Shown piece after piece: positions 1-42,369 of a stretch of 42,369 nt of DNA. Numbering within the stretch: the first letter of the stretch is position 1; the number at the start of each line of letters is the position of its first letter. Source of the DNA: a virus; IMG/VR virus record IMGVR_UViG_3300029286_000095, positions 1 through 42,369 of that record. One strand, written 5' to 3'. The notes below the pieces were generated by a model, which saw only the letters and a program-made list of their open reading frames with translations, was not told the origin of the DNA and did no database searches. Position numbers and translations under genes: made by a program.

Positions 1-150
1 CACCAACAAACTGTATGAATCTACGCTCGGTATTGACCGAACGGCGATTGAAGATGACCTTTATGGCCAGATTCGTATCAAGATTCAGGGCTTGGCTTAT
101 GAGGCTGCTAGGCATACAGAGCAGATGGTGTTCGATATCATCAAAGCTGG
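1..150. repeat. Terminal overlap of circular genome, left copy
   Basis: Bases 1-150 match bases 42220-42369 except at two sites: base 10 is A versus G at 42229 (silent, Lys), and base 29 is G versus A at 42248 (Gly versus Ser). The overlap lies inside the capsid gene and keeps its frame, so this is the closing overlap of a circular or circularly permuted assembly and not a biological terminal repeat. The two differences suggest a mixed population. Confidence 0.9.
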
Positions 151-8048: not shown

Positions 8049-11000
8049 ATGGCTGCACCTTCTTTATCCCCCTATAAAACAAACGGACCCGTTAAAACTG
8101 GACGCACATCAAACAACGGGGATTATTTCAGTGCTACTCTGACAGCCAAGGCAGTATACCTCGATGCTACACACTCGGAATTATGCGCTGGATACGGCTA
8201 CTTCTCAGGTGTCAAAGCGTTCACGATTCTACCCATCTACACGTGGTCAGAATATCCATCCGGGATACTGGACATACCATTATCAAGCGGGAATCCGACA
8301 GCATCGGCTCCGACTGAAGTTTACGACAGTTACAACGATAGTTGGCGGGCTGGATGGAATTATCCGGTTCCACCGACAACGGAACCAACTTTACATCCAA
8401 TCGAACTAAGATACTGTTGTATCCTATATTCATCTGCAACCCGCATTATAGTATATCTCGGTGAAGGTGGAGGTTACACTCTGGAATCCTATGGGGCTGG
8501 TATGGGTCATTACTATTTACCAGCCGCAAACATGGATATATCAGCATCTATGATTATGAATCTCGATGTAGGTTGTCGAGAGCGGGTAGAGATAGAACAA
8601 GCTGTCGGGGCTGGAAGTAAGTGGGTTTGGCCTGATGAATGTTTTGAAGACGGCATGGGTCGGACGGCTGCAGTATTCGATGCTGTAGCAGATACCGAGA
8701 CTTGCATGATAACCATCGGTGAAGATTCGGTTACACTTCCTACTGACTGGATACCATCTTATTCGTTTGGATCCAGCCGAACCATAACCGGACGGGCTGG
8801 ACTTCAAACTGCTGCAATAGGCTCTTTTGGGTGGGGTGTAACTGCCGAATGGCATAAGCCTTACACCATGACCAACAATGATGTATTCGGGGCTATAACT
8901 GAGGTTTCAAAATTAACAATCGGCGTCAAGGAAATGGATCTTCATTTTCGAGACGGGCAAGCATACCAAGGAACCGATACCAACTGCCAGGGGGATGCAG
9001 AAGATAATTGGTTTAGCTATTCAGCCAGGTATTCACCAAACGCAGATGCTAATGTCTACACGCAAGCACAATGGACTGACTTAGGCTTATCCTACGTCCA
9101 CAGTGTAGACTTCGCCATGATGGATGGTGAAGCTCAAGACGATGCAACCAACACAACACCATCATTCACAGATTCCGGCGGAAACTCTTGGTCTGGCACA
9201 ACATCGCCATTATTCGTCTATGACGGCGTATGGTCTTTAATAATGAATGAGCTTGACGGCTCAATCATGGACACCCGAAATACTGAGACTGACGCTTCGG
9301 GAAACGGGGCAAGTTGGGCAAGATCAAACCCGGCTCCCTCGTCATTATCCCTAAAGTTCACCAACCCGCAAGATTTCAACGACCTGCACAGTGGCGATAT
9401 AAACGATTTCAGATGCCAGTTCGTCTACCCGCGTGAAGAAGAGGTTGTCAGTTGGACATTATCAAATGCCGTAATAGACGCATTAACAGATACCGGGACG
9501 CTCGGAGTGGGTGGGTGGAATTCCGTAAACTGCGACATAGCCGAATCAGGCGGGAATCTGGTAGTATCGAATGCGAGTTCCGGAGCTTACATCTATAGAT
9601 CGGATTTTATTATTGATGCTGATTTATGGCAGCCTAAGCATTGGCCTGGTCACCGGTTTGCACAAATAACAGCCGATTGTGTAGACGGCGGCTCAATCGC
9701 ACAAGACATAGATTTGACTATATCAGTGTTAAGAACCGGGGGTGCAGATACATCCACAAAAGTGTATTCCCACCCACTGGCAACGACCACAGAGGCTATA
9801 TTTGATACTTGCAGACCGGATGGAAGCGGGGGAGTCGATACTGCTGAATCTTACATCGATACTGCTTTACCACTGGATACAATAATTGAGGATAGTGTTC
9901 GGAAATCTGCAGAGATATCGAGTCTATCATGGAGTTGGGGTGTAGGCTGTTTCGATAGGATAGAGATTTCTGGATTCATTGCAGGCAATACTTACGCTTT
10001 GCAGGGATTAACTACAATTTACGTTGACCCGGACCCAGGATTATTCGGACAAGTAACCTATGTTCAGCAGGAATGTGATAATTGGCTGGATGTAGGTGCC
10101 ACGGCTATAACTGAATATCCGGAAGACAGCTTCGACAATGAAGTTTGCAGACACATAATAGGCGTCACTAATGGCAGATATGCCTGGGAGGCTCCCTGCG
10201 TCAAAGTATCTAAATCACCACACTATGAAGTTGATTTATATGTGAATTATTCATTAGAACAAGTATTCGAGGATAGCAATAATCGTTGGCCTGTGGATGA
10301 TTTCTCAGCATATGCATTTACTCTGACAGACGCTTTTGATTCAGGTGATTGGGATTCCGAACTCTCGGAATACACCAATGAGCGTGTATTATTTAACAAA
10401 GATGTTTGCCCTGTTTGGTTTTGCCAGTCGAAGCGCCAGGATGGTGAACATGATAATTTACACGATGCTTCGATTAAAATTGCACCTTTATACGATAGAA
10501 TCACAGTCTATCCATCGTGGGGTGATGGAACCGGTGTTACTGCCAGAACCGGGTATGTAACACTAAAATCCGTAAAGCGAGTGCGAGGCCGTGCTAATGG
10601 TTTGTTATATAGCGGCTATTCCTATGGGGTGGACACTCTTACAGCAGAATCAGCATATGTGGAAACATTAACGTCGGACTTGTTGGGCTATTACCGATCT
10701 GGAGACCACAACAAAACATTAGCCTTAAATTACGATTCAAACATAGCCAATATGAGCCCTAAGAATCGCGTGTGGATGCGGATTTGCTTGTCGATTCCCA
10801 CAGGTGCAACATGGCTGAATGCGGTATCGTCCAGGCAGACCGGCAGAGCCTATGTTGTTTACTCACTCGGAGCTGCTATCAATATCCGGATTTTCGATTA
10901 TGGCAATAAGAGTTACCAGGATCGTTATGTATCGGCAAATGCTCTTGATAATTCCTGCGGAATCTGCTACACTGCTGGCAGGAAAGCCGGACTAACCGTT

Positions 11001-11354
11001 GTTTATGATTTAGCCCGGGAAGTTTACAGAATTGAATCATTTGATGAAGGTAAAAACTGGAGTGCAGCCGTGAGTATTGCAACCGGATCATGTCCACAGG
11101 TTTGTTATTCCGAGCGTGCAAGATTGGAAATTACAAGCTATTTTGATACTGATTCGACTTATTGTAAGATCAAAAAGGGTGATGGTGACTATGGATCGGC
11201 AATATTAATTGCAACTTCTGATGAAGCTCCGGCTGGTTTGGCGGTTTTGCAAGGTACGCGAGAGCACAAAATACTTGCTGAAATCGTGCAGAGCGGGGCG
11301 ATTGTGAGATATGCCAGTGTGGATGATGGGAAGACATGGGCGGTGGATGAGTGA
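8049..11354 (+). CDS. Large tail fibre / adhesin with Asp-box repeats
   Basis: At 1101 residues this is the largest gene in the window. It is beta-rich and dominated by Gly, Ser, Thr, Asp and aromatic residues, as expected of a receptor-binding fibre. Near the C-terminus are two Asp-box (BNR, sialidase-type) motifs: SFDEGKNW (about residue 996) and SVDDGKTW (about 1090), with VYDLAREVYRIE-type strands between, suggesting a partial beta-propeller that binds or cleaves glycans. Sialidase catalytic residues cannot be assigned by eye. It lies at the end of the tail operon, the usual fibre position. It is the main candidate for host recognition. Confidence 0.65.
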   Translation: MAAPSLSPYKTNGPVKTGRTSNNGDYFSATLTAKAVYLDATHSELCAGYGYFSGVKAFTILPIYTWSEYPSGILDIPLSSGNPTASAPTEVYDSYNDSWRAGWNYPVPPTTEPTLHPIELRYCCILYSSATRIIVYLGEGGGYTLESYGAGMGHYYLPAANMDISASMIMNLDVGCRERVEIEQAVGAGSKWVWPDECFEDGMGRTAAVFDAVADTETCMITIGEDSVTLPTDWIPSYSFGSSRTITGRAGLQTAAIGSFGWGVTAEWHKPYTMTNNDVFGAITEVSKLTIGVKEMDLHFRDGQAYQGTDTNCQGDAEDNWFSYSARYSPNADANVYTQAQWTDLGLSYVHSVDFAMMDGEAQDDATNTTPSFTDSGGNSWSGTTSPLFVYDGVWSLIMNELDGSIMDTRNTETDASGNGASWARSNPAPSSLSLKFTNPQDFNDLHSGDINDFRCQFVYPREEEVVSWTLSNAVIDALTDTGTLGVGGWNSVNCDIAESGGNLVVSNASSGAYIYRSDFIIDADLWQPKHWPGHRFAQITADCVDGGSIAQDIDLTISVLRTGGADTSTKVYSHPLATTTEAIFDTCRPDGSGGVDTAESYIDTALPLDTIIEDSVRKSAEISSLSWSWGVGCFDRIEISGFIAGNTYALQGLTTIYVDPDPGLFGQVTYVQQECDNWLDVGATAITEYPEDSFDNEVCRHIIGVTNGRYAWEAPCVKVSKSPHYEVDLYVNYSLEQVFEDSNNRWPVDDFSAYAFTLTDAFDSGDWDSELSEYTNERVLFNKDVCPVWFCQSKRQDGEHDNLHDASIKIAPLYDRITVYPSWGDGTGVTARTGYVTLKSVKRVRGRANGLLYSGYSYGVDTLTAESAYVETLTSDLLGYYRSGDHNKTLALNYDSNIANMSPKNRVWMRICLSIPTGATWLNAVSSRQTGRAYVVYSLGAAINIRIFDYGNKSYQDRYVSANALDNSCGICYTAGRKAGLTVVYDLAREVYRIESFDEGKNWSAAVSIATGSCPQVCYSERARLEITSYFDTDSTYCKIKKGDGDYGSAILIATSDEAPAGLAVLQGTREHKILAEIVQSGAIVRYASVDDGKTWAVDE

Positions 11355-18898: not shown

Positions 18899-19705
18899 AT
18901 GAGCGAAGCTCTTACACTCCCAACTGAGAAAAGCCAGCCGATTTATGATCTGAATCGGCTGACAACACTGCTCTATGGATTGCCTAAAATTGGAAAGACG
19001 ACATGGGCTGCAGGTGCCGATTCAGCATTATTCCTTGCAACCGAGGAAGGACAAAACCACGTTGAAGTATTTAAGCGTGAGGTTCCTGATTGGCCTACAT
19101 TTTGCGCTTACTGCCAACTAATAGGCTCCGGTAATCACAATTTCAAAACCATTGTGATTGATACTATCGACAATCTATATGATAAGTGTGTTACTTACGT
19201 AAACCAGCAAAACGGGATTGTTCACGAAAATGATATGGGTTACGGCAAGGGATACTCTCTCATATATCGGGAATTCGTAAGTTGGTTAACGTGGCTGTCG
19301 TTGCAACCTTACGGATTGATAATGCTTTCTCACGCCCGGCAAATGGAGGTAAAGACACCCACCGGAACGGTCGTAAAGTACACTTGTTCTCTGCCAGATT
19401 CCCCGAAAAATAGTATTAAATTGGCAGTCTACAAAATGAGTGATCTATTCCTGTTTGCCGAATTGGAAGAGGTCTATGATGATACTGGCAAGATAATTAG
19501 TTATGACCGGGTCGTGCGAACCCAGCCAACCACAATTTACGAGGCCGGTGATAGAACTGGCAGACTCCCTGAGACGCTCCCATTAAATTACGATGCATTC
19601 GCATATTACATTATGGGTAATGCGGTGGAACCGGTAAGTTCTGAAGAAATCGGCAAAGAATCAGTGCCAATCGATGATTCCTACAATCCTTATGAATCCG
19701 AGTAG
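18899..19705 (+). CDS. Sak4-like RecA-fold recombination ATPase
   Basis: A 268-residue AAA/RecA-fold protein. Walker A is GLPKIGKTTW (about residues 26-35), preceded by LLYG, and Walker B is TIVIDTIDN (about 83-91). A later stretch, YGLIMLSHARQMEV, carries the sensor-like His/Arg region. This matches the phage AAA_24/Sak4 group, which promotes strand annealing and recombination together with an SSB. The next gene is an ssDNA-binding candidate, then nuclease, helicase and primase, which supports this role. It might also act at replication forks. Confidence 0.75.
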   Translation: MSEALTLPTEKSQPIYDLNRLTTLLYGLPKIGKTTWAAGADSALFLATEEGQNHVEVFKREVPDWPTFCAYCQLIGSGNHNFKTIVIDTIDNLYDKCVTYVNQQNGIVHENDMGYGKGYSLIYREFVSWLTWLSLQPYGLIMLSHARQMEVKTPTGTVVKYTCSLPDSPKNSIKLAVYKMSDLFLFAELEEVYDDTGKIISYDRVVRTQPTTIYEAGDRTGRLPETLPLNYDAFAYYIMGNAVEPVSSEEIGKESVPIDDSYNPYESE

Positions 19706-23474: not shown

Positions 23475-25929
23475 CACAAATCACACACTCCAGAAAGTGC
23501 TTAACGCATTCCGCAGTATAAAAGGACCGTCCAGCAATGGCACTTACACTGCGCATTGTCCTTCGCACGATGATAAGCGGAATTCATTATGTATTAGCCA
23601 GTGTCCGGACGGCAAAGTATTATTGCATTGCCAGGCGGGATGTAAAGCTCCAGACGTTGTTAATGCTGCCAACTTAAAAATGCGGGATCTATTTCCACCT
23701 AAAATTAAGGAGAATAATAATGAGACTCAACACACGCCACTTAAACCGGATTCTGAGATCCTATCACCGATATTGGAGGTATTGCAAGAGCAAACAGAAT
23801 CACCGCTACCACAGGTAGAACCCAAACAACGTCCCAAAACCCGCAAGGATTCCTACGTCTACGTAGACGAAGCGGGGAACCCTAAATACAAGGTTGTGCG
23901 AACTCCAGATAAACAATTCCCGCAATATCATTATGATCCAGATGCTAAGGGCTCAAAATGGATTAAAGGTATGGACAACATCGAAAGATTGCCATACCAC
24001 CTGCCGAATGTAATTCACGCTATTGCATCTGACAATTACGTGTTCATCACCGAGGGTGAGAAGGATGTAAATACATTATTCTCGCATAACTTCCCGGCAA
24101 CATGTAATTCCGGCGGAGCCGGTAAGTGGCTACCATCTTTCAGTAAATTCTTTCGTGATGCTTACGTGATAGTAATTCCGGATAATGATAAGCCGGGATG
24201 TGATCACGCTCTCGATATTGCTTGCTCACTCCATCCAGTGGCAAGGGAAATTCGAATATTGAAATTACCAGTACCACATAAGGGTGATGTATCGGACTGG
24301 TTTTTGACTGGCGGGACTCCGGAAACCTTTGCGGAGCAAGCACTTCAATCCCCAATCTGGCATCCTGGGGACCTAGTGGAACCCTGGGGGGAGGCCAAAG
24401 GCCAATTAGGAACTGCAATCGCACAACGATCTACAGTTTACAGCCACGTTTACAATGCCGAAATGTTTTACGATGTCCACGGTGAAAATGTTAAATATTG
24501 CTCTGATGAAAAAATGTGGTATGTCTGGAATACACAAATTTGGCAAAAAGACGACTTAGGTATAGTTAAGCGAATGATGCTTGATTGTATCAAAACATTG
24601 TATTCCAAGCTATCTGAATTAAGCAGGAATGAGGCTGCGGACCTAATTAGGCATATTAAGGCTTCCGAGAACGTAAAGGCCATAGACGGGACACTGGACG
24701 CGGTAAAACTGCTTGATAATGTTACGATCCGGGCTGATTCGCTAAATTGTAATCCCTATTTGTTATCTACTCTTAATGGCACAGTAAATCTGCAAACTGG
24801 AAAACTCCAAAACTTCAATCGAGAGAATATGATAACTACTCAGATTAAAGTCCACTATGACCAGGAAGCGCAGTGTGAACGTTGGACCCGATTTGTTGAT
24901 GAAATATTTCCTGGAGATCCCGATACGCAAAAATATGTGCAACGAATGACCGGGTATTTATTGCTTGGTAGTAATCGACGGCAAGAGTGCTATTTCTTTT
25001 TTGGTAAACCATCAACAGGTAAATCGGTATTTGCTGAGACCATATCAGACATTCTTGGTGATCATGCTGCGCCCATGATGAAATCCCAATTGTTAGAGAG
25101 TCCACACGGTGGAACAAATGATAGGCAAGGGGTTGCAGCTACCTGGGACAAGCACATGGTTACTTGTTCAGAATTCTCTAGTAATGACAAGTTGGATGAA
25201 GATTTGATTAAATCCCTTGCGGGGGGTGATGGATTATCAGTCAGGCATATTTACTGTAAGTCCTTTACAGTTCACCCCCGATTCAAACTTGTGCTATATA
25301 CGAATTTCATTCCGAAGTTCAAAAGTATCGGCTATGACATGCGTAAGAGGCTCCGAATAATACCATTTACACAAACATTCTACAGTAAAGATGAGCAGAA
25401 ATACCCGGTACGGGATGATGATTTAAAGGACAAACTTCTAATGGAACAATCAGGCATTTTGGCTTGGGCTGTTCGCGGTTGGCTGGACTGCCAGGAACAC
25501 GGGAACCCGGAAAGCGTATCAATAAAAATGTGCACAGATTCTTGTTTCGAGGAGCAGGATTCGCTTGCGGAATTCCTTGAAGCGAAGTGTGTTTTCGACT
25601 TTCGTAGAGAAATACTGCTAAAAGATTTATGGAAAGAATTGCAAACTTACTATAAAGAACAAGACAGGCGGGCACCTTTCAACGATTCACGCGGATTGCG
25701 TTCATCTTTGCAAAACAGAGACGGTATTACAGTCAAAAAAATGCACGGCGCAGTAAAAATCATAGGATTAGACTGGAAAAACGAACAAAACGGCCTAAAT
25801 TGGGAGTCTAGTGAGGATATTCCCGCAGAGTATCGTAGATATAATAATTCTACATACTCTCAGGGAAATGCCTCCCCTGCCTCCCCTGCCTCCCCTTATC
25901 CTAAATTAGATACTGTAGAAATTGATTAG
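23467..25929 (+). CDS. P4-type primase-helicase
   Basis: An 820-residue fusion for initiation of phage DNA replication; ATG 23467. It has a zinc-finger primase start (HCPSHDD... LHCQAGC, residues ~30-60), a Toprim domain (VFITEGEKDVNTL ~194-206; VIVIPDNDKPG ~235-245), a D5-type N-terminal region, and a superfamily 3 helicase: FFFGKPSTGKSVF (Walker A, ~515), VTCSEFSS, VLYTNFIPKF and MRKRLRIIPF with the arginine finger. These are the phage P4 alpha-type components, which also bind the origin. The C-terminus carries an Ala-Ser-Pro tripeptide three times, encoded by 9-bp repeats that belong to the element at 25870-26037. Confidence 0.85.
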   Translation: MSDTNHTLQKVLNAFRSIKGPSSNGTYTAHCPSHDDKRNSLCISQCPDGKVLLHCQAGCKAPDVVNAANLKMRDLFPPKIKENNNETQHTPLKPDSEILSPILEVLQEQTESPLPQVEPKQRPKTRKDSYVYVDEAGNPKYKVVRTPDKQFPQYHYDPDAKGSKWIKGMDNIERLPYHLPNVIHAIASDNYVFITEGEKDVNTLFSHNFPATCNSGGAGKWLPSFSKFFRDAYVIVIPDNDKPGCDHALDIACSLHPVAREIRILKLPVPHKGDVSDWFLTGGTPETFAEQALQSPIWHPGDLVEPWGEAKGQLGTAIAQRSTVYSHVYNAEMFYDVHGENVKYCSDEKMWYVWNTQIWQKDDLGIVKRMMLDCIKTLYSKLSELSRNEAADLIRHIKASENVKAIDGTLDAVKLLDNVTIRADSLNCNPYLLSTLNGTVNLQTGKLQNFNRENMITTQIKVHYDQEAQCERWTRFVDEIFPGDPDTQKYVQRMTGYLLLGSNRRQECYFFFGKPSTGKSVFAETISDILGDHAAPMMKSQLLESPHGGTNDRQGVAATWDKHMVTCSEFSSNDKLDEDLIKSLAGGDGLSVRHIYCKSFTVHPRFKLVLYTNFIPKFKSIGYDMRKRLRIIPFTQTFYSKDEQKYPVRDDDLKDKLLMEQSGILAWAVRGWLDCQEHGNPESVSIKMCTDSCFEEQDSLAEFLEAKCVFDFRREILLKDLWKELQTYYKEQDRRAPFNDSRGLRSSLQNRDGITVKKMHGAVKIIGLDWKNEQNGLNWESSEDIPAEYRRYNNSTYSQGNASPASPASPYPKLDTVEID

Positions 25930-27089: not shown

Positions 27090-27680
27090 ATGTTTGCAAG
27101 TGTGGATTACGAAGTATTAACCGATGAGCAGTGTGAAGAATTTGTCAATGAGATTATTGCAGATTGTGAGAATATTTATACCGACGCACAATTAGCCCGA
27201 AAAGCCCGCGAAATGCGTGATAGATTAGGTTCTCGGGAGGTTATATCCAAATACCTGCAAAAAGTCTACAGTGAGGACAATTCCGCTGTGGATGATACTT
27301 TTGTCGAGACTATATGCGGTGACATCAAAGATGCTGCTAATCGTGACAAACACGTTAGTAACCAAGATTTCGAAATGGTGTGCATGAGGGCAAAGAAGGC
27401 GTCATATGCACAAATAGCAGTTGCTTTCAACATCCCTAAAAGCACTTGTCATTACAGGATTCACCGGTCCAGGGCATTGATTCTAAAACACAAGCATTTG
27501 GGGTTTTGGGAAGACATCATGGACATGCAGCGATGTGTTCAGTCGAATTGGTATTCGATGTTCAGGGAAATGATTGAGTGGGCTGAGGCCGGGTTTCCAA
27601 CATTCAAGAAAGAGCCAAACTACAAAGAGCCAAACTACAAAGAGCCTAAAAGAAAACGAGCTCAGCAAAAAAATAAATAA
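27090..27680 (+). CDS. HTH DNA-binding protein with EPNYK repeats
   Basis: A 196-residue protein with GAGG at 27079-27082 before its ATG. The centre holds a sigma-region-4-like helix-turn-helix (ASYAQIAVAFNIPKSTCHYRIHRSRALI, about residues 108-136 in two parts). The N-terminus is acidic and helical. The C-terminus has tandem KEPNYKEPNYKEP made by two exact 15-bp repeats (27609-27638) and a basic end (KRKRAQQKNK). Last gene before the packaging region, it may be a late-gene activator, a role phages often give such HTH proteins in this place. A small-terminase-like role is less likely, since another gene fits that better. Confidence 0.55.
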   Translation: MFASVDYEVLTDEQCEEFVNEIIADCENIYTDAQLARKAREMRDRLGSREVISKYLQKVYSEDNSAVDDTFVETICGDIKDAANRDKHVSNQDFEMVCMRAKKASYAQIAVAFNIPKSTCHYRIHRSRALILKHKHLGFWEDIMDMQRCVQSNWYSMFREMIEWAEAGFPTFKKEPNYKEPNYKEPKRKRAQQKNK

Positions 27681-31112: not shown

Positions 31113-32426
31113 ATGAAAATATACACCGAACTGCTGAAAACCATAAAACGGACTGTGACTAATCTCGCAAAAGGTATTATAGGCGAGCAGGGCGTCGTGT
31201 CCGGTTGGTCTTGGAACTCAGCAAAACCGATAGTTGATGACGATGTCATCAGCCGTAAGGGTTCGTCTGAATACAAACTGATGATTAAGGATCCGTCTGT
31301 CGGTCCGGCTGTCTCAACCAAGATTTATGGTGTTTTGGCAAAGGGATATCAGATCACACCTTGTGCAGGGGAAGACGATGCGAACTATGAGCAAGCCAAA
31401 CAGCAAGCCGATTTCGTGGAAATGATCTTTACCAAAATGCCGGGAACTCTCACGGATCGGCTCAAAGAAATACTGCGGGATTGCATCCAGTGGGGCGGCT
31501 CCATAGGTGAGAAGTTGTGGGAATGGGATAAGGAATTATCATTCATCCTGCTAACCAACATCAAAATTAAGGACCCGCTGCTGTACGATACTGAGCAGGA
31601 CGATTACGGCAATGTAACCAAATTACTGCTGACTGTCAAAGGCGGGAAAGTAGAAGTAGACCAGGCGAAGTTCATCAGAGTGGTCTACAACGCAGTCCAC
31701 GGCGAAGCATGGGGCGAGTCCGATTTACGCGGTGCGTATTTGTATTGGGTTATCAAGTCGAAATTAATCCGATGGTGGGCTGCTTATTTAGAGAAATTCG
31801 CCATGCCTACCGCAAAAGGAAGTTTCGCTCCGGGTACTCCGAAAACGGCTCAAGATGATTTGTTGAAAGTCTTATCGTCCATCCAGCAAGAAACCGCTAT
31901 TGTCATTCCGGACAACGTCCAGGTTGAATTGATGGAGGCTGCGGGGAAGACTTCTTCGGAGTTTGGGCAGGCATTGGACTACTTCGATAAGCAGATCACT
32001 AAGTCGATATTAGGCCAAACATTGGCAACCGAGCAGAACTCTAAAACCGGCTCTTTGGCACAGGCCAAAGTCCACCAAGATACTTTGATTTCCTATATCA
32101 CCGATTTAAAATTGATGATTGAATCAGTTATGGATGAGCAGGTCATCCGTGACATAGTCGATTATAATTTCGTTGATCGCTTCTATCCGAATTTCATTCT
32201 GCCATTAGATGAAAAAGACATCCAGTTGCTTGCAGCTATCATCTACCAACTCACAACCTGCGGGCAAGTCAACATCGGTGAATCTTGGATACGTGAGTTC
32301 TTAGGGCTTCCTGAAATGGAAGATGGTTCGGAAGTGCAGACTACTATAGTTAACCCGCAGGACACTAAACCGCCCGCAAGAACGCCGAAAAACAAAACGC
32401 AACCTACACCTAGGGAGAGTGAATAA
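31113..32426 (+). CDS. Portal protein, Mu gp29-like (DUF935)
   Basis: A 437-residue protein. It shows DUF935 features: DVISRKGSSEYKLMIKDPSV near the N-terminus, a central WGESDLRGAYLYWVIKSK, FAMPTAKGSF, and LGQTLATEQNSKTGSLAQAK with VHQDTLISYI toward the C-terminus. The portal is the dodecameric ring through which DNA enters and leaves the head. It follows the large terminase as in Mu and its relatives. The C-terminal ~25 residues are Thr/Pro-rich and disordered. Secure call. Confidence 0.85.
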   Translation: MKIYTELLKTIKRTVTNLAKGIIGEQGVVSGWSWNSAKPIVDDDVISRKGSSEYKLMIKDPSVGPAVSTKIYGVLAKGYQITPCAGEDDANYEQAKQQADFVEMIFTKMPGTLTDRLKEILRDCIQWGGSIGEKLWEWDKELSFILLTNIKIKDPLLYDTEQDDYGNVTKLLLTVKGGKVEVDQAKFIRVVYNAVHGEAWGESDLRGAYLYWVIKSKLIRWWAAYLEKFAMPTAKGSFAPGTPKTAQDDLLKVLSSIQQETAIVIPDNVQVELMEAAGKTSSEFGQALDYFDKQITKSILGQTLATEQNSKTGSLAQAKVHQDTLISYITDLKLMIESVMDEQVIRDIVDYNFVDRFYPNFILPLDEKDIQLLAAIIYQLTTCGQVNIGESWIREFLGLPEMEDGSEVQTTIVNPQDTKPPARTPKNKTQPTPRESE

Positions 32427-32427
32427 T

Positions 32428-32823
32428 ATGGGATTACTATCGTTTTTCAAAAGTGGGGTATGGACTGAGGTTTCAGACACTGAAGGTCTGCCGGTTAAAT
32501 TCTCTCATGGGCTGAATCGAGATGACGATGCTGTGAAGTGCTATCCTGCTGAATGCAATATGACGGTTATAGATTTAAGCGGGAATGATTCAACAGTTGT
32601 CTCTGCTGTGCCAGCATTATTACTCGGAATATACATCGATGTAACTATAGGCACAACGGCAGTTACTATTGACGATGACACCACGGTCAAGATCACATTG
32701 CCGGTTGCAATAGCTGTCGGGAGTAATCTAGACTTCCACGCCGCATTATTCGCAACAAATCTCACAGTCAATCCGGCTGATGATTCCACAGGCACAATTA
32801 CGGTATTTTGGATGGTGGCATAA
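32428..32823 (+). CDS. Small structural protein after portal, unknown
   Basis: A 131-residue protein from ATG 32428 (AGGGAGAG at 32412-32419). It is beta-rich and low in charge, with a Thr-, Val- and Asp-rich second half (VTIGTTAVTIDDDTTVKITL; TITVFWMVA). It looks like a small capsid-decoration or fibre-attachment domain, but no family is recognised. Its stop overlaps the next gene's start (TAATG). It opens the block of surface proteins lying between portal and gpF. Confidence 0.5.
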   Translation: MGLLSFFKSGVWTEVSDTEGLPVKFSHGLNRDDDAVKCYPAECNMTVIDLSGNDSTVVSAVPALLLGIYIDVTIGTTAVTIDDDTTVKITLPVAIAVGSNLDFHAALFATNLTVNPADDSTGTITVFWMVA

Positions 32824-34367
32824 TGGCCAGGGTAGCATCAACAAACCGCCAATTGGTAAAACACAATCACGTAAAGGAAACACCCGCACGTGTGGTAAAG
32901 TTTGCTGCTCACGGGCTTACTTCTGCAGAATATGGCTTAACTGCCGTTGGAACTCCCAGTGTGGATACTTCGATATTCAGGATTGAAGATTCCACGCTAA
33001 AGATGACAATATCAGATAACACATTTGCACAATGGAAAGGCTTTTTTGAAGATACTTTAGACTTCAATAGTCCGAACGGGATAGCACTATCATTCTACAT
33101 TCCGAACACCCTGAGAGGAACCGGGGCAAGCGCTGCTCCATATATGGTGTTCAGCTTCTCCAACACGGCAACCAGCAAGGCTTCCCCTGCTGCAAGATCA
33201 AACCATTCGATGTATTTTTATGAGGTCCGGAATGGGTGGAATTATGTGAGGCTTAGGCCGGATGATTCCAGTTCTGATGCTGCTTTAAATAGTCCCTTTG
33301 TCGGGAATATCGGTTGGTCTGCAGTAACAACCGGAGCTTCAATGGCAACCGCTGTTAATTGGCTGTCCATCGATATGTATAATTTCAATGGCAGAGATAT
33401 CTATTTTGAGGGTATATACCGAGGCGGTTCCAATCGTTCCAAATTCTGTTGGCAGTTCGACAATTGGGGTGCAGTCGTCCAAGAAACAGTCGATGTTTTG
33501 TTCCCTGCGAACGATTGGAAATGGGTTATTGATGTTCCTGACAATTATGTTGTAGCAGATGCTGATTTACTTGCCAGGATTGATGCAAGCCTGCCATTAG
33601 GGGCTGAATTAGTGCTGAATGATACAACGGATCGGAGCTTGACAGCATTATCACGTGAGCAAGTTCGCGATATGGTTGCAGCCAACAAAATTGTATTTGA
33701 TTCGCGAGGTTGGGCGTATGACCCTCGATTCTACATCTACAACAACAATGTTTACAATGACGCCGTAGTGGCAGGATTACAAGACGCCGGTATTAAGTAT
33801 GCCAGGGCTGGAGAAAATGAACTCTGGATAAATAATATCGAACAAGGTATTCCTAATCCGCTTCGATATGGCTCTAAGTCGATGGATAATACCACATATG
33901 CCACGCTTAAAATATGGCTAGACCGTGCTATCCAATATCAATGTGACATCCATTGGTACCAGCACAATCTAGTTGTTGGAGGAGTTGTTGGAGGCGGAGG
34001 GCAGACCGGAGTAGCCATTACATCCATAACGTCTGCAAGCACAATAGCGACAGTTACAACCACTGTACCTCACGGAATTAACACCACAGGTCGGGTTACT
34101 ATAGCCGGTTGCACTGGAGATCACGCAGCTAAGTTCAATATATCAACAAATGTCACAGTAACCGGACTGGACACGTTTACTTATGTGATTGCCGATGCTT
34201 CTGATACTTCCGCAGAAGGAACGCCAACTTACTCTAATATTGCTTGTTCTACAGCATTGAGCCAGTATTCCGAAGATTTCCTGGCATTTGCTGCTTACGT
34301 GAAGGCTTGCGAGAATCTTGGACTACTTGAGGTTATCGGACTCACCGAGTGGTGGGATTCTTTATAA
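32823..34367 (+). CDS. Degenerate NodB-fold surface protein with inserted beta module
   Basis: A 514-residue protein from ATG 32823. Residues ~1-200 form a lectin-like beta domain (FRIEDSTLKMTISDN; YVRLRPDDSSSDA). Residues ~200-375 resemble the polysaccharide deacetylase (NodB) barrel: FCWQFDNWGAVVQ, ALSREQVRDMVAANK, AVVAGLQDAGIKYARAG. The catalytic FDDG and SHTxxH are FDNW and FDSRGW, so activity is doubtful. A ~85-residue module (GVAITSITSASTIATVTTT... PHGINTTGRVTIAG) of a kind found in many phage fibres interrupts the barrel before its end (YVKACENLGLLEVIGLTEWW). It may bind glycans without cleaving them. Confidence 0.55.
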   Translation: MARVASTNRQLVKHNHVKETPARVVKFAAHGLTSAEYGLTAVGTPSVDTSIFRIEDSTLKMTISDNTFAQWKGFFEDTLDFNSPNGIALSFYIPNTLRGTGASAAPYMVFSFSNTATSKASPAARSNHSMYFYEVRNGWNYVRLRPDDSSSDAALNSPFVGNIGWSAVTTGASMATAVNWLSIDMYNFNGRDIYFEGIYRGGSNRSKFCWQFDNWGAVVQETVDVLFPANDWKWVIDVPDNYVVADADLLARIDASLPLGAELVLNDTTDRSLTALSREQVRDMVAANKIVFDSRGWAYDPRFYIYNNNVYNDAVVAGLQDAGIKYARAGENELWINNIEQGIPNPLRYGSKSMDNTTYATLKIWLDRAIQYQCDIHWYQHNLVVGGVVGGGGQTGVAITSITSASTIATVTTTVPHGINTTGRVTIAGCTGDHAAKFNISTNVTVTGLDTFTYVIADASDTSAEGTPTYSNIACSTALSQYSEDFLAFAAYVKACENLGLLEVIGLTEWWDSL

Positions 34368-34389
34368 TTGCTTGGTTAAGTAAAATTTG

Positions 34390-34437
34390 CGTGGCTAGGG
34401 TCTCAGCCTAACAAGCGGTTTCCCTGCCGCTGCCACG
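34390..34437 (+). ncRNA. Candidate compact three-way-junction RNA
   Basis: P1: CGTGGC (34390-34395) with GCCACG (34432-34437). P2: TAGG (34396-34399) with CCTA (34407-34410). P3: AGCGG (34414-34418) with CCGCT (34427-34431). The helices abut with no unpaired bases except ACA (34411-34413) between P2 and P3. It lies in the 85-base gap between two structural genes, just before the ribosome binding site (GAGG, 34441-34444) of the next one. No known family is recognised. Confidence 0.5.
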
Positions 34438-34452
34438 ATTGAGGATAGATAA

Positions 34453-34797
34453 ATGCTAATTAATCAAGTTTGTGATGGATACGATGTGTTAGATGCTTAT
34501 GAGTGCGTCTTGCACTTCGCTGAATACCCATCCCAACAACTTATAGATGACACTGTGACATCTCTTGTGGCAGGACAAGCACAGCAGGAAGCAGACACAC
34601 AACAGGCAGAAGCCGAGAAACAGGCTGAACAAGAAATCTTAGCTGTTGTTAAAGATATTATTGTTGCTGAAAAATTGCGAGATGATTTAATTATTGAAGT
34701 GCAAGTATTGACGGATACCAAACAGCAATACAAAGACAAATTAGAAGCTATTGGTGTGATTGTTGACCATGTTGACACTAAAGTGGTGGTTAAATAA
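34453..34797 (+). CDS. Small coiled-coil protein, unknown
   Basis: A 114-residue protein with GAGG before ATG 34453. Its middle is a long, Gln/Ala/Glu-rich helix (AGQAQQEADTQQAEAEKQAEQE) that continues in a heptad pattern (IIVAEKLRDDLIIEVQVLTDTKQQYKD), so it should form a coiled coil. It lies between two surface proteins and overlaps the beta-helix gene start by one base (TAATG), suggesting a fibre stalk or assembly helper. Unknown family. Confidence 0.55.
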   Translation: MLINQVCDGYDVLDAYECVLHFAEYPSQQLIDDTVTSLVAGQAQQEADTQQAEAEKQAEQEILAVVKDIIVAEKLRDDLIIEVQVLTDTKQQYKDKLEAIGVIVDHVDTKVVVK

Positions 34798-36689
34798 TGG
34801 CTGTTATTACTGCAACTGGATCAGGAAATTGGAGTTCCACGACCGCAGGAGCACCATGGAATGGAGGGACTAAGCCTTCAGCCGGGGATTCTGTTGTCAT
34901 AAATACCGGCGTTGTTTTGACTGTTGATGAATCCACACCTGACGCAATAACTTCTATCTCAGGAGCAGGAACACTGGCTTTGGGAACTGCATCCGGTGCG
35001 AGAACTATCTACTGTTCCGGTAACATCTCTTGTTTGGTCACAGGCGGTTCTTCTGGCACGCCTATGCCTCTTGGTTCTGACACTACTTTTCAGTTGGGTG
35101 CAGCGGGTAAGTTTACGACATCTACTGCGGGTGGTATCGCTATTTATGGCGGCTTAATTGATACAGTAGACACAGGCATGAGCAACGACTGGACTGCTGA
35201 GATTAAGACAACCACAGGAGCTACAGACAGCACTATTGATGTTATCGGCGATGTCCGCAACTGGAATACACTGGCAACCAGGGCAAGGCAGACTGTTTGG
35301 ATAACAAAAAAGATACAAACAGACACATCTACTATTGCAAATGCTAGACGGCTCATACATGCCACAACTGACATAACTTATAATTCTGGCACGAATACAT
35401 CAACCATCACACTGGCATCTGCACTCACAGAGGTTAAAGAGGCTGGTGGACATGTAACACTTGAGACTCGTAATGTAAGATGCACATATACTGGCACGCA
35501 AAATCTGTTTGATACTCTTACAAACATGGTTACTCAGGCAGTTGAGTTTATAAATACAAACGCAACTAGCCAAGGACGTATTATCAGCGGTGGCACAGGC
35601 CATAATGCCACATCAGCAACGTTCACAGGGAATTCATATGGCATCGCCTTTGGCACAGACCATAATGCCACATCAGCAACGTTCACAAGGAATACAAATG
35701 GCATCCACTCTGGCACAGGCCATAATGCCACATCAGCAACGTTCACAGGGAATTCAAATGGCATCTACTATGGCACAGGCCATAATGCCACATCAGCAAC
35801 GTTCACAGGGAATTCAAATGGCATCAGCGGTGGCACAGGCCATAATGCCACATCAGCAACGTTCACAGGGAATACAAATGGCATCTACTCTGGCACAGGC
35901 CATAAATTATATAATTGCACATTCGGCAGTCCATCTATAAACACAACAGCGGACATTCAAGATACGAACGAAATAGTTATGAGTAATTGCACATTAGCAT
36001 CAACAGTGCAAAATAAGTGGACAAAAACTACAGGTTATTTGTCTTATCTCACAAGTAGATGGAAAACCGACTCTTTGAATCACAATAACACTGCAAATGC
36101 TCGTAAATGTTTTACTCTTGGCGGGTTCGTATCGACATTAGCAGCCGACAGCGTGAGTATTCCCGCAGGGTCGGCAAACAGTGTTGACCATCAGATGTTT
36201 TGCAACGATGTGCTTTATCTCTGTTTCATGGAAGATAGATACACACTGCTTGCAGGAGTAGCCTATACATTCCATTGCGAAGTCAGGCGAACAGTAGCAA
36301 GCATGACGCTTAATCCTGTTTTTGAGCTTGCTAATGTATTCAGTGATACGCTTGATATGGGTGGCACTGCTCTTGATTCTGCAACAATGACAGCCGGAGC
36401 AGATACATGGGAAGTATTAGAATTAACCTATACACCTACGAATAATGAAGATGTATGGTTGAGACTCAAAGCACAACATGGTAGCGGTAATGTGTATTTC
36501 AAGATGTGGATGGAAGCACCTGTATTTCCCGCAGCCGCAGACGTTATCGAGGGGGCGGCTGGGGATGTTACCGGAACTTACCACGAAGCGGCAGTTGGCG
36601 AAGTGCAATCAGGCGTTATGTTTGGACCCTCCAGCACGCTTGAGGGCACTTACGCAGGCGGCGGCGGAGTTATCGTAATAGACGATTAG
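34797..36689 (+). CDS. Beta-helix surface protein with variable 20-residue repeats
   Basis: A 630-residue protein. Residues ~1-260 suit a right-handed beta-helix start (GNWSSTTAGAPWNGGTKPSA, GDSVVINTGVVLTVDE). Residues ~266-370 are five near-identical 20-residue units with core GHNATSATFTGNSNGI, typical of one beta-helix rung each. The C-terminal part (about 430-600) looks like a carbohydrate-binding beta-sandwich. Each repeat differs mainly in two residues after NGI (AF, HS, YY, SG, YS). It is probably a receptor- or polysaccharide-binding fibre. No reverse transcriptase or other diversifying enzyme is seen. It lies in the portal-gpF block. Confidence 0.6.
   Translation: MAVITATGSGNWSSTTAGAPWNGGTKPSAGDSVVINTGVVLTVDESTPDAITSISGAGTLALGTASGARTIYCSGNISCLVTGGSSGTPMPLGSDTTFQLGAAGKFTTSTAGGIAIYGGLIDTVDTGMSNDWTAEIKTTTGATDSTIDVIGDVRNWNTLATRARQTVWITKKIQTDTSTIANARRLIHATTDITYNSGTNTSTITLASALTEVKEAGGHVTLETRNVRCTYTGTQNLFDTLTNMVTQAVEFINTNATSQGRIISGGTGHNATSATFTGNSYGIAFGTDHNATSATFTRNTNGIHSGTGHNATSATFTGNSNGIYYGTGHNATSATFTGNSNGISGGTGHNATSATFTGNTNGIYSGTGHKLYNCTFGSPSINTTADIQDTNEIVMSNCTLASTVQNKWTKTTGYLSYLTSRWKTDSLNHNNTANARKCFTLGGFVSTLAADSVSIPAGSANSVDHQMFCNDVLYLCFMEDRYTLLAGVAYTFHCEVRRTVASMTLNPVFELANVFSDTLDMGGTALDSATMTAGADTWEVLELTYTPTNNEDVWLRLKAQHGSGNVYFKMWMEAPVFPAAADVIEGAAGDVTGTYHEAAVGEVQSGVMFGPSSTLEGTYAGGGGVIVIDD
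35592..35905 (+). repeat. Five 60-bp tandem repeats plus partial sixth
   Basis: Units beginning GGCACAGGCCATAATGCC start at 35592, 35652, 35712, 35772 and 35832, with a partial sixth from 35892. The period is exactly 60 bp (20 codons). Most bases are identical; changes cluster in the two codons that precede each unit start (35586-35591, 35646-35651, 35706-35711, 35766-35771, 35826-35831, 35886-35891). Confidence 0.95.
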
Positions 36690-36697
36690 GAGTTATT

Positions 36698-38350
36698 ATG
36701 GCATACGATCAGATAATCAAAAAGGCGGCTAATAACTCCTACATCGCAGAAGTTATGCTGAGGGATTCCGCCACGGGGCAGGCTAAAACCGGTATAGCTT
36801 ACGGCAGTGTTGCCTATGCCTATTGGCGTGAGGGAGCATCGACTGGAGCAAATGGAACTGCCGTTACGATGACCAAAGGAACCTATGCAGATCACGGTTG
36901 GGTGGAAGTCGATGCAACCAACCAAAAGGGCGTATATCAGTTTGGAGTCCCAGATGCAGCATTGGCAACGGGGGCAAATGCGGTTACGATCAACTTTTAC
37001 GTGACCGGGTGTATTGATGCTCGGATTCGTATATTACTTGTGGATATCGACATTAGGGATGCAGCCGATTTAGGGCTGACTAACCTTGATGCAGCTATAT
37101 CCACAGTAGCAACCCAGACCAGCGTAAATACCATTGACGGAATTGTTGATGATATTCTCACAGACACCGGCACGACAATCCCAGGCACGATTACCACGAT
37201 GCAGGGGAATGTTACGGACATATTAACCGACACTGGCACAACATTGGACGCTCTAATCAAAGACATTCCAACAGTCGCAGAATTCGAGGCCAGAACCCGT
37301 GTTGCAGCAGAATACGCACTGACAACCACTCTGATGAACCTCCACGCTGATTATGCAGCAGCCAAGACAGCGGCCACACAAGCTAGTGTGAACGATATAC
37401 CGACTGTTGCAGAGTTTGAAGCAAGAACGATAGTTTCAGCCAATTATGCGCTTGAGGCTACCCTCACAACCATAGATGGGCTGATTGATTCCATCCTTGC
37501 AGATACCAACGAATTGCAGACTGATTGGGTTAACTCGGGTAGATTGGATGCTCTTATTGATGCTATCAAGGCCAAAACCGATTTAATACCAGCATCACCC
37601 GCAGCCGTTGGTAGTGCGATGACGGTTAGTGACAAAACAGGATTTAGTCTATCTTCTGCAGGTATTCAGGCAGTTTGGGAATACTCCACACGGACAGTAT
37701 CATCATTCGGCACATTAATTGCAGATACGTGGGGTGCACTAACATCAGCACTTACCGGAGCCGGTAGCATAGGTAAACTCTTAGTCGATAATGTGGACGG
37801 CAAAATATCTGAGATAAGTGGTGGAACCGGGCTCACAGCACAGGAAACCCGCGATGCCATGAAACTGGCACCATCAGCAGGGGCGGCGGCGGCTGATTCG
37901 ATTGATGATAAGATTGACAATATTTCGGTCACAATGTCCGAACAGGATAAGACAGACATTGCGAGTGATACTGCCAATAGTGTTATCGCAGGTTTAGCAG
38001 GTCAAACCATCGTTGTCAGATCCCCTTTAATTTCAGCAGGCACAATTCAGATCGTCAAAGGCGATACTTACAATCCGGATAGAACTAATCGCAGAATACG
38101 ATTTGAGGTCACAAATGCTTCAGACCTTACAGGGGCAACCGTCACTTTTGAGTGGACTGGTACAGGAACCGCAACTTGTGAAGTTACTGATGCCGGGCAA
38201 GCCACACAAATAATTGACGTTCCTTTGTCTGCAGCAAATACATTGGCAATGCAAAATGGAACATTCAAGATTTATGCAACATGGGAAACACCCGTGGATG
38301 TTGAAACTATCATTTTTGGGATGATAGCCATAACCGGAACTGTGTTGTAA
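36698..38350 (+). CDS. Fibre-like structural protein with coiled-coil repeats
   Basis: A 550-residue protein. Residues ~1-115 form a beta-rich N-terminal domain (IAEVMLRDSATGQAKTGIAY; VYQFGVPDAALA) like the head- or tail-attachment domains of fibres. Residues ~115-300 contain repeating helical segments (VDDILTDTGTTIPGTITTMQ and VTDILTDTGTTLDALI; two copies of DIPTVAEFEART). A short segment GIQAVWEYSTRTVSSFGTL recurs in many phage structural proteins. Residues ~450-550 look like an immunoglobulin-like beta domain. Overall an elongated trimeric fibre is likely. Exact attachment point is unknown. Confidence 0.55.
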   Translation: MAYDQIIKKAANNSYIAEVMLRDSATGQAKTGIAYGSVAYAYWREGASTGANGTAVTMTKGTYADHGWVEVDATNQKGVYQFGVPDAALATGANAVTINFYVTGCIDARIRILLVDIDIRDAADLGLTNLDAAISTVATQTSVNTIDGIVDDILTDTGTTIPGTITTMQGNVTDILTDTGTTLDALIKDIPTVAEFEARTRVAAEYALTTTLMNLHADYAAAKTAATQASVNDIPTVAEFEARTIVSANYALEATLTTIDGLIDSILADTNELQTDWVNSGRLDALIDAIKAKTDLIPASPAAVGSAMTVSDKTGFSLSSAGIQAVWEYSTRTVSSFGTLIADTWGALTSALTGAGSIGKLLVDNVDGKISEISGGTGLTAQETRDAMKLAPSAGAAAADSIDDKIDNISVTMSEQDKTDIASDTANSVIAGLAGQTIVVRSPLISAGTIQIVKGDTYNPDRTNRRIRFEVTNASDLTGATVTFEWTGTGTATCEVTDAGQATQIIDVPLSAANTLAMQNGTFKIYATWETPVDVETIIFGMIAITGTVL

Positions 38351-41986: not shown

Positions 41987-42369
41987 ATGCCACTAACCAG
42001 AGGGGATTTGTCAGCCGGTCTGCTTTTGCCCGGCATTAAGGCAGTATTTTTCGAGACATACAACGCTTACATAAGCGGACAGCCATGGGCAGACCTTGTT
42101 ATGGAGATTGATTCCAATAAGGACTTGGAAACCTATGCATGGCTGGGTGCCGTTCCAAAGATGAAAGAATGGCTCGGTGAGAGAACGGTTGAATCGCTCA
42201 ATCAGAGCAAGTTCACCATCACCAACAAGCTGTATGAATCTACGCTCAGTATTGACCGAACGGCGATTGAAGATGACCTTTATGGCCAGATTCGTATCAA
42301 GATTCAGGGCTTGGCTTATGAGGCTGCTAGGCATACAGAGCAGATGGTGTTCGATATCATCAAAGCTGG
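41987..42369 (+). CDS. Major capsid protein, Mu gpT-like (N-terminal part)
   Basis: The first 127 residues of the capsid gene, which continues at base 151 of the window after the 150-bp overlap. ATG 41987 has AAGGAG (41972-41977). The N-terminus (LLLPGIKAVFFETYNAYIS; WADLVMEIDSNKDLETYAWLG; KMKEWLGERTVESL) is strongly like Mu-type major head subunits. It forms the capsid shell with the decoration protein encoded just before it. Confidence 0.85.
   Translation, partial: MPLTRGDLSAGLLLPGIKAVFFETYNAYISGQPWADLVMEIDSNKDLETYAWLGAVPKMKEWLGERTVESLNQSKFTITNKLYESTLSIDRTAIEDDLYGQIRIKIQGLAYEAARHTEQMVFDIIKA
42220..42369. repeat. Terminal overlap of circular genome, right copy
   Basis: Right-hand copy of bases 1-150, differing at 42229 (G for A) and 42248 (A for G). 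The two copies keep the same capsid reading frame, so the unique genome length is 42,219 bp. Confidence 0.9.

What the first reader, a model, noticed from the sequence alone, without database searches (positions are those of the whole stretch)
35586..35905. Near-identical 60-bp repeats whose differences cluster in two codons
Five full units are almost identical at the DNA level, yet the two residues after each NGI are AF, HS, YY, SG and YS. Conservation of silent sites elsewhere implies recent duplication or gene conversion, while the two-codon site changes rapidly. On a beta-helix these residues would stack on one face, a binding surface that could change by repeat shuffling. No diversity-generating reverse transcriptase or template repeat is visible here.
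Basis: partly seen in the sequence, partly recalled or inferred. Interest (0 to 1): 0.65.

Follow-up and report, generated by a model that had tools for sequence, protein, structure and literature searches.

The report
Phage adhesin array with variable patch
A phage carries a probable host-binding protein built from near-identical 20-residue repeats whose number changes between otherwise identical genomes and whose differences, in this phage and two distant relatives, fall at the same four residues, as if a binding stripe were being varied without the usual reverse-transcriptase system.

Summary
Window 35586-35885 has five 60-bp units (plus 20 bp) in a 630-aa phage ORF, 34797-36689. They differ at 8 columns, all at codon positions 1 or 2; 9 of 13 changes lie in the two codons after GI. 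The two codons before GI also vary, so the variable patch is xx-GI-xx.

A second contig (IMGVR 3300029268_000149) is identical over 20.8 kb except for exactly two extra units. The window array is that array minus 120 bp, so copy number changes quickly while the diresidues do not.

Two distant phage contigs encode homologues (49% identical to each other, 27-35% to the window's) with near-identical 57-bp units. The same four positions vary in all three arrays (P about 2e-5). A patch defined from the window is enriched for variable columns in the two others (P = 2e-5).

No RVT_1 reverse transcriptase is found in any of the four contigs, and no template repeat in the window, whose ends overlap (essentially complete genome).

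Best reading: a probable beta-helix phage adhesin evolving by unit gain, loss and homogenisation with diversifying selection on one patch; it works like TAL-effector diresidues on another scaffold. Fold, location and binding are inferred.

The parts
34797..36689 (+). 630-aa ORF carrying the array; probable phage surface adhesin: G8-like N-terminal start, pre-array segment, beta-helical repeats, C-terminal domain
   Evidence: Open frame; no Pfam or PHROG family above cut-off; weak sub-threshold G8 match at residues 21-62; homologues L029 and L174
35586..35885 (+). five full 60-bp units (20 aa each): xxGTGHNATSATFTGNxxGI
35886..35905 (+). partial sixth unit, start of a copy (YSGTGH), ending in the non-repetitive C-terminal part
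35901..35909 (.). junction at which the window lacks exactly 120 bp (two units) compared with the sister contig; 4 bp (ATAA) of identity
35634..35651 (+). first occurrence of the variable patch xx-GI-xx (SYGIAF); it recurs every 60 bp up to 35874-35891 (TNGIYS)
18899..19705 (+). Sak4-like single-strand annealing protein; possible agent of unit recombination (inferred, not tested)
   Evidence: phrog_124, E = 1.2e-37
32808..34367 (+). 519-aa ORF in the same portal to Mu-F interval; weak tail-fibre match, possible accessory surface protein
   Evidence: phrog_529, E = 0.002
36698..38350 (+). 550-aa ORF downstream of the array gene; fibre-like by appearance, no family match

Best explanation
The array is the repetitive, probably beta-helical part of a phage surface adhesin. 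Shown: units are almost identical within a phage but differ between phages, so the array turns over by unit duplication, deletion or conversion (concerted evolution); the window array equals a sister array minus exactly two units while the other 20.8 kb are identical; differences between units concentrate in four residues, xx-GI-xx, in three homologous arrays, mostly at amino-acid-changing codon positions. Inferred: each rung presents this patch on the surface of the solenoid, the stacked patches form a ligand-binding stripe (most likely for a host glycan or other surface polymer), point mutations in the patch are kept by diversifying selection, and unequal recombination or replication slippage, possibly helped by the phage's own Sak4-like annealase, reassorts and recounts the units. 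The stripe thus changes without a diversity-generating retroelement.
For: Exact two-unit difference in otherwise identical 20.8 kb, explained by one 120-bp deletion. Two distant homologues with near-identical 57-bp units. The same four positions vary in all three arrays (P about 2e-5). Patch columns vary at 53% against 7% elsewhere; 17 of 19 patch changes are at codon positions 1-2 while 5 of 10 elsewhere are third positions; patch defined on the window, tested on the other two arrays, P = 2.4e-5. Homologue L029 sits between tail gene J and an endolysin gene. Modelled array resembles pectate-lyase-type helices and phage tailspikes.
Against: No structure, binding or virion data. The structure model is single-sequence AlphaFold2, a method known to over-predict beta-solenoids for such repeats. 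In the window the gene lies among head genes, not tail genes. L029 and L174 are related, so part of their patch polymorphism may be inherited. Selection is inferred from few changes (P = 0.02-0.03 for codon positions). The diresidues are unchanged between the two near-identical contigs.
Confidence: 0.55

Rival explanations
1. Neutral tandem repeat: the array expands and contracts by slippage, and the patch varies only because it is a tolerant surface position, with no selected binding role.
For: Copy number change needs no selection. Conserved G, T, H and I positions may be structural, leaving only the patch free to vary. Evidence for selection is modest.
Against: Silent sites in the patch are hardly variable (2 of 19 columns) while silent sites elsewhere do vary in the relatives (5 of 10 columns). 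Codons such as AGC GGT and GCC TTT differ by four non-silent changes with none at third positions.
Confidence: 0.27
2. Targeted mutagenesis: the patch is, or was, the target of a diversity-generating retroelement acting in trans or since lost; codons of the NNC and NNT type are what mutagenesis of AAC and AAT template codons would give.
For: Variable codons keep the third base (NNC, NNT) in the window; 16 of 19 patch columns contain an A where 11.5 are expected (P = 0.02, not corrected for base composition).
Against: No RVT_1 match in the window or in the three other contigs; no template repeat in the essentially complete genome; two window or sister patch columns (G/T and C/T) lack A; the diresidues are identical in the two contigs.
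Confidence: 0.06
3. Assembly artefact: repeat number, or the differences between units, result from misassembly of short reads.
For: Metagenome contigs; perfect internal repeats of 55 bp (window) and 83 bp (sister contig). Reads could not be examined.
Against: Five units agree letter for letter in two separately deposited contigs. The deletion junction lies beyond a C/T mismatch in a 4-bp identical stretch, which a simple repeat collapse would not create. Distant relatives show the same kind of array.
Confidence: 0.07

Closest known systems
TAL effector repeats with repeat-variable diresidue (Xanthomonas; PMC6344855)
   Same: Near-identical tandem units in which two adjacent residues carry most of the differences; arrays reassort by recombination (the latter from my own knowledge).
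   Different: TAL units are 34 aa, helical, bind DNA inside plant cells; here units are 19-20 aa, predicted beta-strand, in a phage protein, with two variable residues on each side of GI. No homology; a likeness of arrangement only.
T4 long tail fibre adhesin gp37 with duplicated small domain (Tetart et al. 1996, J Mol Biol 258:726, seen only as a reference in PMC9603124)
   Same: Recombination between short internal repeats changes the number of units of a phage host-binding protein; reported there to widen host range.
   Different: Other fold and motif; no fixed variable patch in near-identical units that I know of. Host-range effect is not shown here.
BACON domain tandem repeats of crAss-like phages (PMC6949934)
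   Same: Tandem repeats in tail-associated phage proteins, formed in one lineage by sequential duplication, suggested to bind the host.
   Different: Units are whole domains and well diverged; here single 19-20-residue rungs, nearly identical, with a variable patch.
Diversity-generating retroelements (phage variable proteins)
   Same: Variation limited to few codons in a probable host-binding protein; codons of NNC and NNT type.
   Different: No reverse transcriptase match and no template repeat; variation sits in tandem units and is accompanied by copy number change.
Right-handed parallel beta-helix tailspikes and polysaccharide lyases (for example K5 lyase 2x3h, HK620 tailspike)
   Same: Predicted fold of the array aligns with them (Z about 9-12); common in phage host-binding proteins.
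   Different: Sequence identity 5-12%; no catalytic residues looked for; known members do not have near-identical rungs; Z is in the range that repeats can reach by a common arrangement.

Membership tests
Diversity-generating retroelement target | reverse transcriptase gene of the retroelement nearby | tested here: not met
   No RVT_1 match in the window, whose ends overlap (essentially complete), nor in the three other contigs, which may be fragments
Diversity-generating retroelement target | template repeat matching the variable region | tested here: not met
   No second copy outside the array at up to 2 mismatches, nor in a scan that tolerates A in the template
Diversity-generating retroelement target | changes confined to positions that are A in the template | tested here: inconclusive
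   16 of 19 patch columns contain A, expected 11.5, P = 0.02; no template to compare
TAL effector family | 34-aa helical units of the TAL sequence family | tested here: not met
   Units are 20 aa, strand-predicted, and no Pfam family matches
TAL-like arrangement (works like, not member) | near-identical units with variation concentrated at a fixed short site | tested here: met
   Four shared variable positions in three arrays; patch enrichment P = 2.4e-5 in the two not used to define it
Phage beta-helix tailspike | right-handed parallel beta-helix fold | tested here: inconclusive
   Single-sequence AlphaFold2 model, pLDDT about 70-87 in the units; Foldseek finds nothing at E <= 0.001; second-look Z 9-12; known bias of the method
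GTGH-repeat phage proteins (group defined here: window, L029, L174) | homologous pre-array segment plus tandem xxG[TAP]GH...xxGI units | tested here: met
   L029 and L174 49% identical along the whole protein; window 27-35% over the pre-array segment and array, partly driven by repeats
Phage receptor-binding protein | present on the virion and binds the host surface | not testable with these tools
   Gene neighbourhood only: tail-fibre position in L029; head-gene interval in the window

The most novel reading that the evidence does not exclude
A family of phage adhesins with a modular read-out: each near-identical beta-helix rung carries a short variable patch (xx-GI-xx) that recognises one element of a repetitive host polymer, and the phage rewrites its specificity by recombining and recounting rungs, a TAL-like combinatorial code on a phage surface protein that needs no dedicated mutator.
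Probability: 0.15. Interest if true: 0.85.

Novelty: new variant of a known kind. Interest (0 to 1): 0.55.

Why it matters
If right, phages have a simple route to fast change of a host-binding surface: homogenised repeats keep the scaffold intact and make recombination easy, while one patch per rung stays variable. This differs from retroelement-driven diversification and from whole-domain swapping. The natural arrays give a ready set of rung variants for a direct binding test in the laboratory.

Tried and rejected
Retroelement in cis: no reverse transcriptase match or template. Looking for the protein in cultured phages, plasmids and prokaryote genome contigs: nothing convincing. A profile search of about 400 genomes in each of two phyla gave only short matches to a pre-array segment of the profile in three genomes, which I did not follow. 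The pattern for HNATxATF hit four other contigs, none with arrays. A third pattern added no new array-bearing contig. Foldseek alone gave no confident match. The full-length structure model was too poor to use (mean pLDDT 40). The portal relative L012 has no such repeat gene. Recent duplication in the direction window to sister contig was considered and is less simple than a deletion.

Full report
What is there. The window is a phage contig (G000, 42,369 bp) with terminase, Mu-type portal, Mu-F and other head genes, connector and tape-measure genes. Its two ends overlap over 150 bp with two mismatches inside the major head protein gene, so the genome is essentially complete and circularly permuted. 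ORF 34797-36689 (630 aa) lies between the portal and Mu-F genes. Its array of five 60-bp units plus 20 bp is as reported.

Is it more than chance? Among the five units 8 columns vary, all at codon positions 1 or 2. Nine of 13 minimal changes fall in the two codons after GI (P = 1.5e-5 for any codon pair). Two further codons, just before GI, also vary, so the zone is xx-GI-xx. The lack of silent change alone is only moderately significant (P between 0.014 and 0.09 by the number of changes assumed).

A sister contig shows unit turnover. IMGVR_UViG_3300029268_000149 matches window 21113-41946 without a mismatch except for 120 extra bp, two whole units. Deleting 120 bp from its array gives the window array exactly, at five equivalent positions with 4 bp of junction identity; a tandem duplication in the other direction leaves at least three mismatches. 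The seven-unit state is therefore the simpler ancestor. The junction lies beyond a C/T mismatch, so it is not what a simple repeat collapse in assembly would produce. All shared units, diresidues included, are identical: at this time scale unit number changes and the diresidues do not.

Distant relatives have the same arrangement. A degenerate search for NGIxxGTGH found two further phage contigs with near-identical 57-bp units: L029 (721 aa, seven full units and a partial one) and L032/L174 (690 aa, seven units). They are 49% identical to each other. The window protein matches them at 27-35% over the pre-array segment and array; these scores are partly driven by the repeats. Units are alike within each phage and differ between phages, the mark of concerted evolution. 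In all three arrays the two residues after GI and the two before GI vary (P about 2e-5 for four shared positions). Patch columns vary at 53% against 7% elsewhere (P = 5e-9); 17 of 19 patch columns are at codon positions 1-2, while half of the variable columns elsewhere are third positions. Because the patch was seen in the window first, the fair test is on the other two arrays: P = 2.4e-5. Those two arrays are related, so inherited polymorphism may contribute.

How it most likely works. Shown: unit gain or loss, homogenisation, and a conserved variable patch dominated by amino-acid-changing sites. Inferred: the fold, exposure, binding and selection. A single-sequence AlphaFold2 model of the seven-unit fragment is a beta-solenoid (pLDDT about 70-87 in the units, pTM 0.65) with a strand NGIxxGT in most rungs. 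Its second-look matches are pectate-lyase-type helices and phage tailspikes or depolymerases (Z about 9-12), while Foldseek alone has no confident match. AlphaFold2 is reported to over-predict beta-solenoids for perfect repeats (PMC11795689), so this is a lead, not a test. In L029 the gene sits between the tail gene J and an endolysin, a usual tail-fibre place; in the window it sits in a variable block between portal and Mu-F genes, where relative L012 has a LamG lectin gene. Both fit an accessory adhesin. The phage encodes a Sak4-like annealase, a plausible but untested agent of unit recombination.

Against a retroelement. No RVT_1 match in four contigs and no template in the window. The excess of patch columns containing A (16 of 19, expected 11.5, P = 0.02) is weak and not corrected for composition.

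Comparison with what is known. TAL effectors vary two adjacent residues in near-identical units (PMC6344855); T4 gp37 changes by duplication of a small domain (Tetart 1996, seen as a reference in PMC9603124); crAss-like phages have tail-associated BACON repeats (PMC6949934). I found no report of a phage array of beta rungs with a fixed variable patch, but the literature search covered open papers only and was short. I call it a new variant of a known kind: the parts are familiar, the combination is not one I could find.

Noticed in passing
window 1-150 and 42220-42369: The contig ends overlap over 150 bp with two mismatches inside the major head protein gene: a circularly permuted, essentially complete genome of about 42.2 kb, although the record is classed as linear.
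   Followed up: partly
window 32419-38350; L012 11368-12776: The interval between portal and Mu-F genes holds unrelated genes in the two phages although the flanking genes are homologous (portal 54%, Mu-F 63%); in L012 it holds a LamG lectin gene. It looks like a variable cargo locus for surface proteins.
   Followed up: partly
window 8049-11354: 1101-aa ORF downstream of the tape-measure region without any Pfam or PHROG match; possible tail-tip or fibre protein.
   Followed up: no
L029 4697-5020 (-) and L174, just upstream of the array gene: A 108-aa gene of the same family lies directly before the array gene in both relatives (31% identical); the window has an unrelated-looking 114-aa gene at the same place (34453-34797). 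It might be a chaperone or partner of the array protein.
   Followed up: no
window 25869-25896 and 27609-27646: Two short perfect tandem repeats (9 bp x 3.1 and 15 bp x 2.5).
   Followed up: no
L176, L177, L178 (three prokaryote genomes): Short profile matches to the pre-array segment of the family in large open frames (876-1008 aa), without the array region.
   Followed up: no
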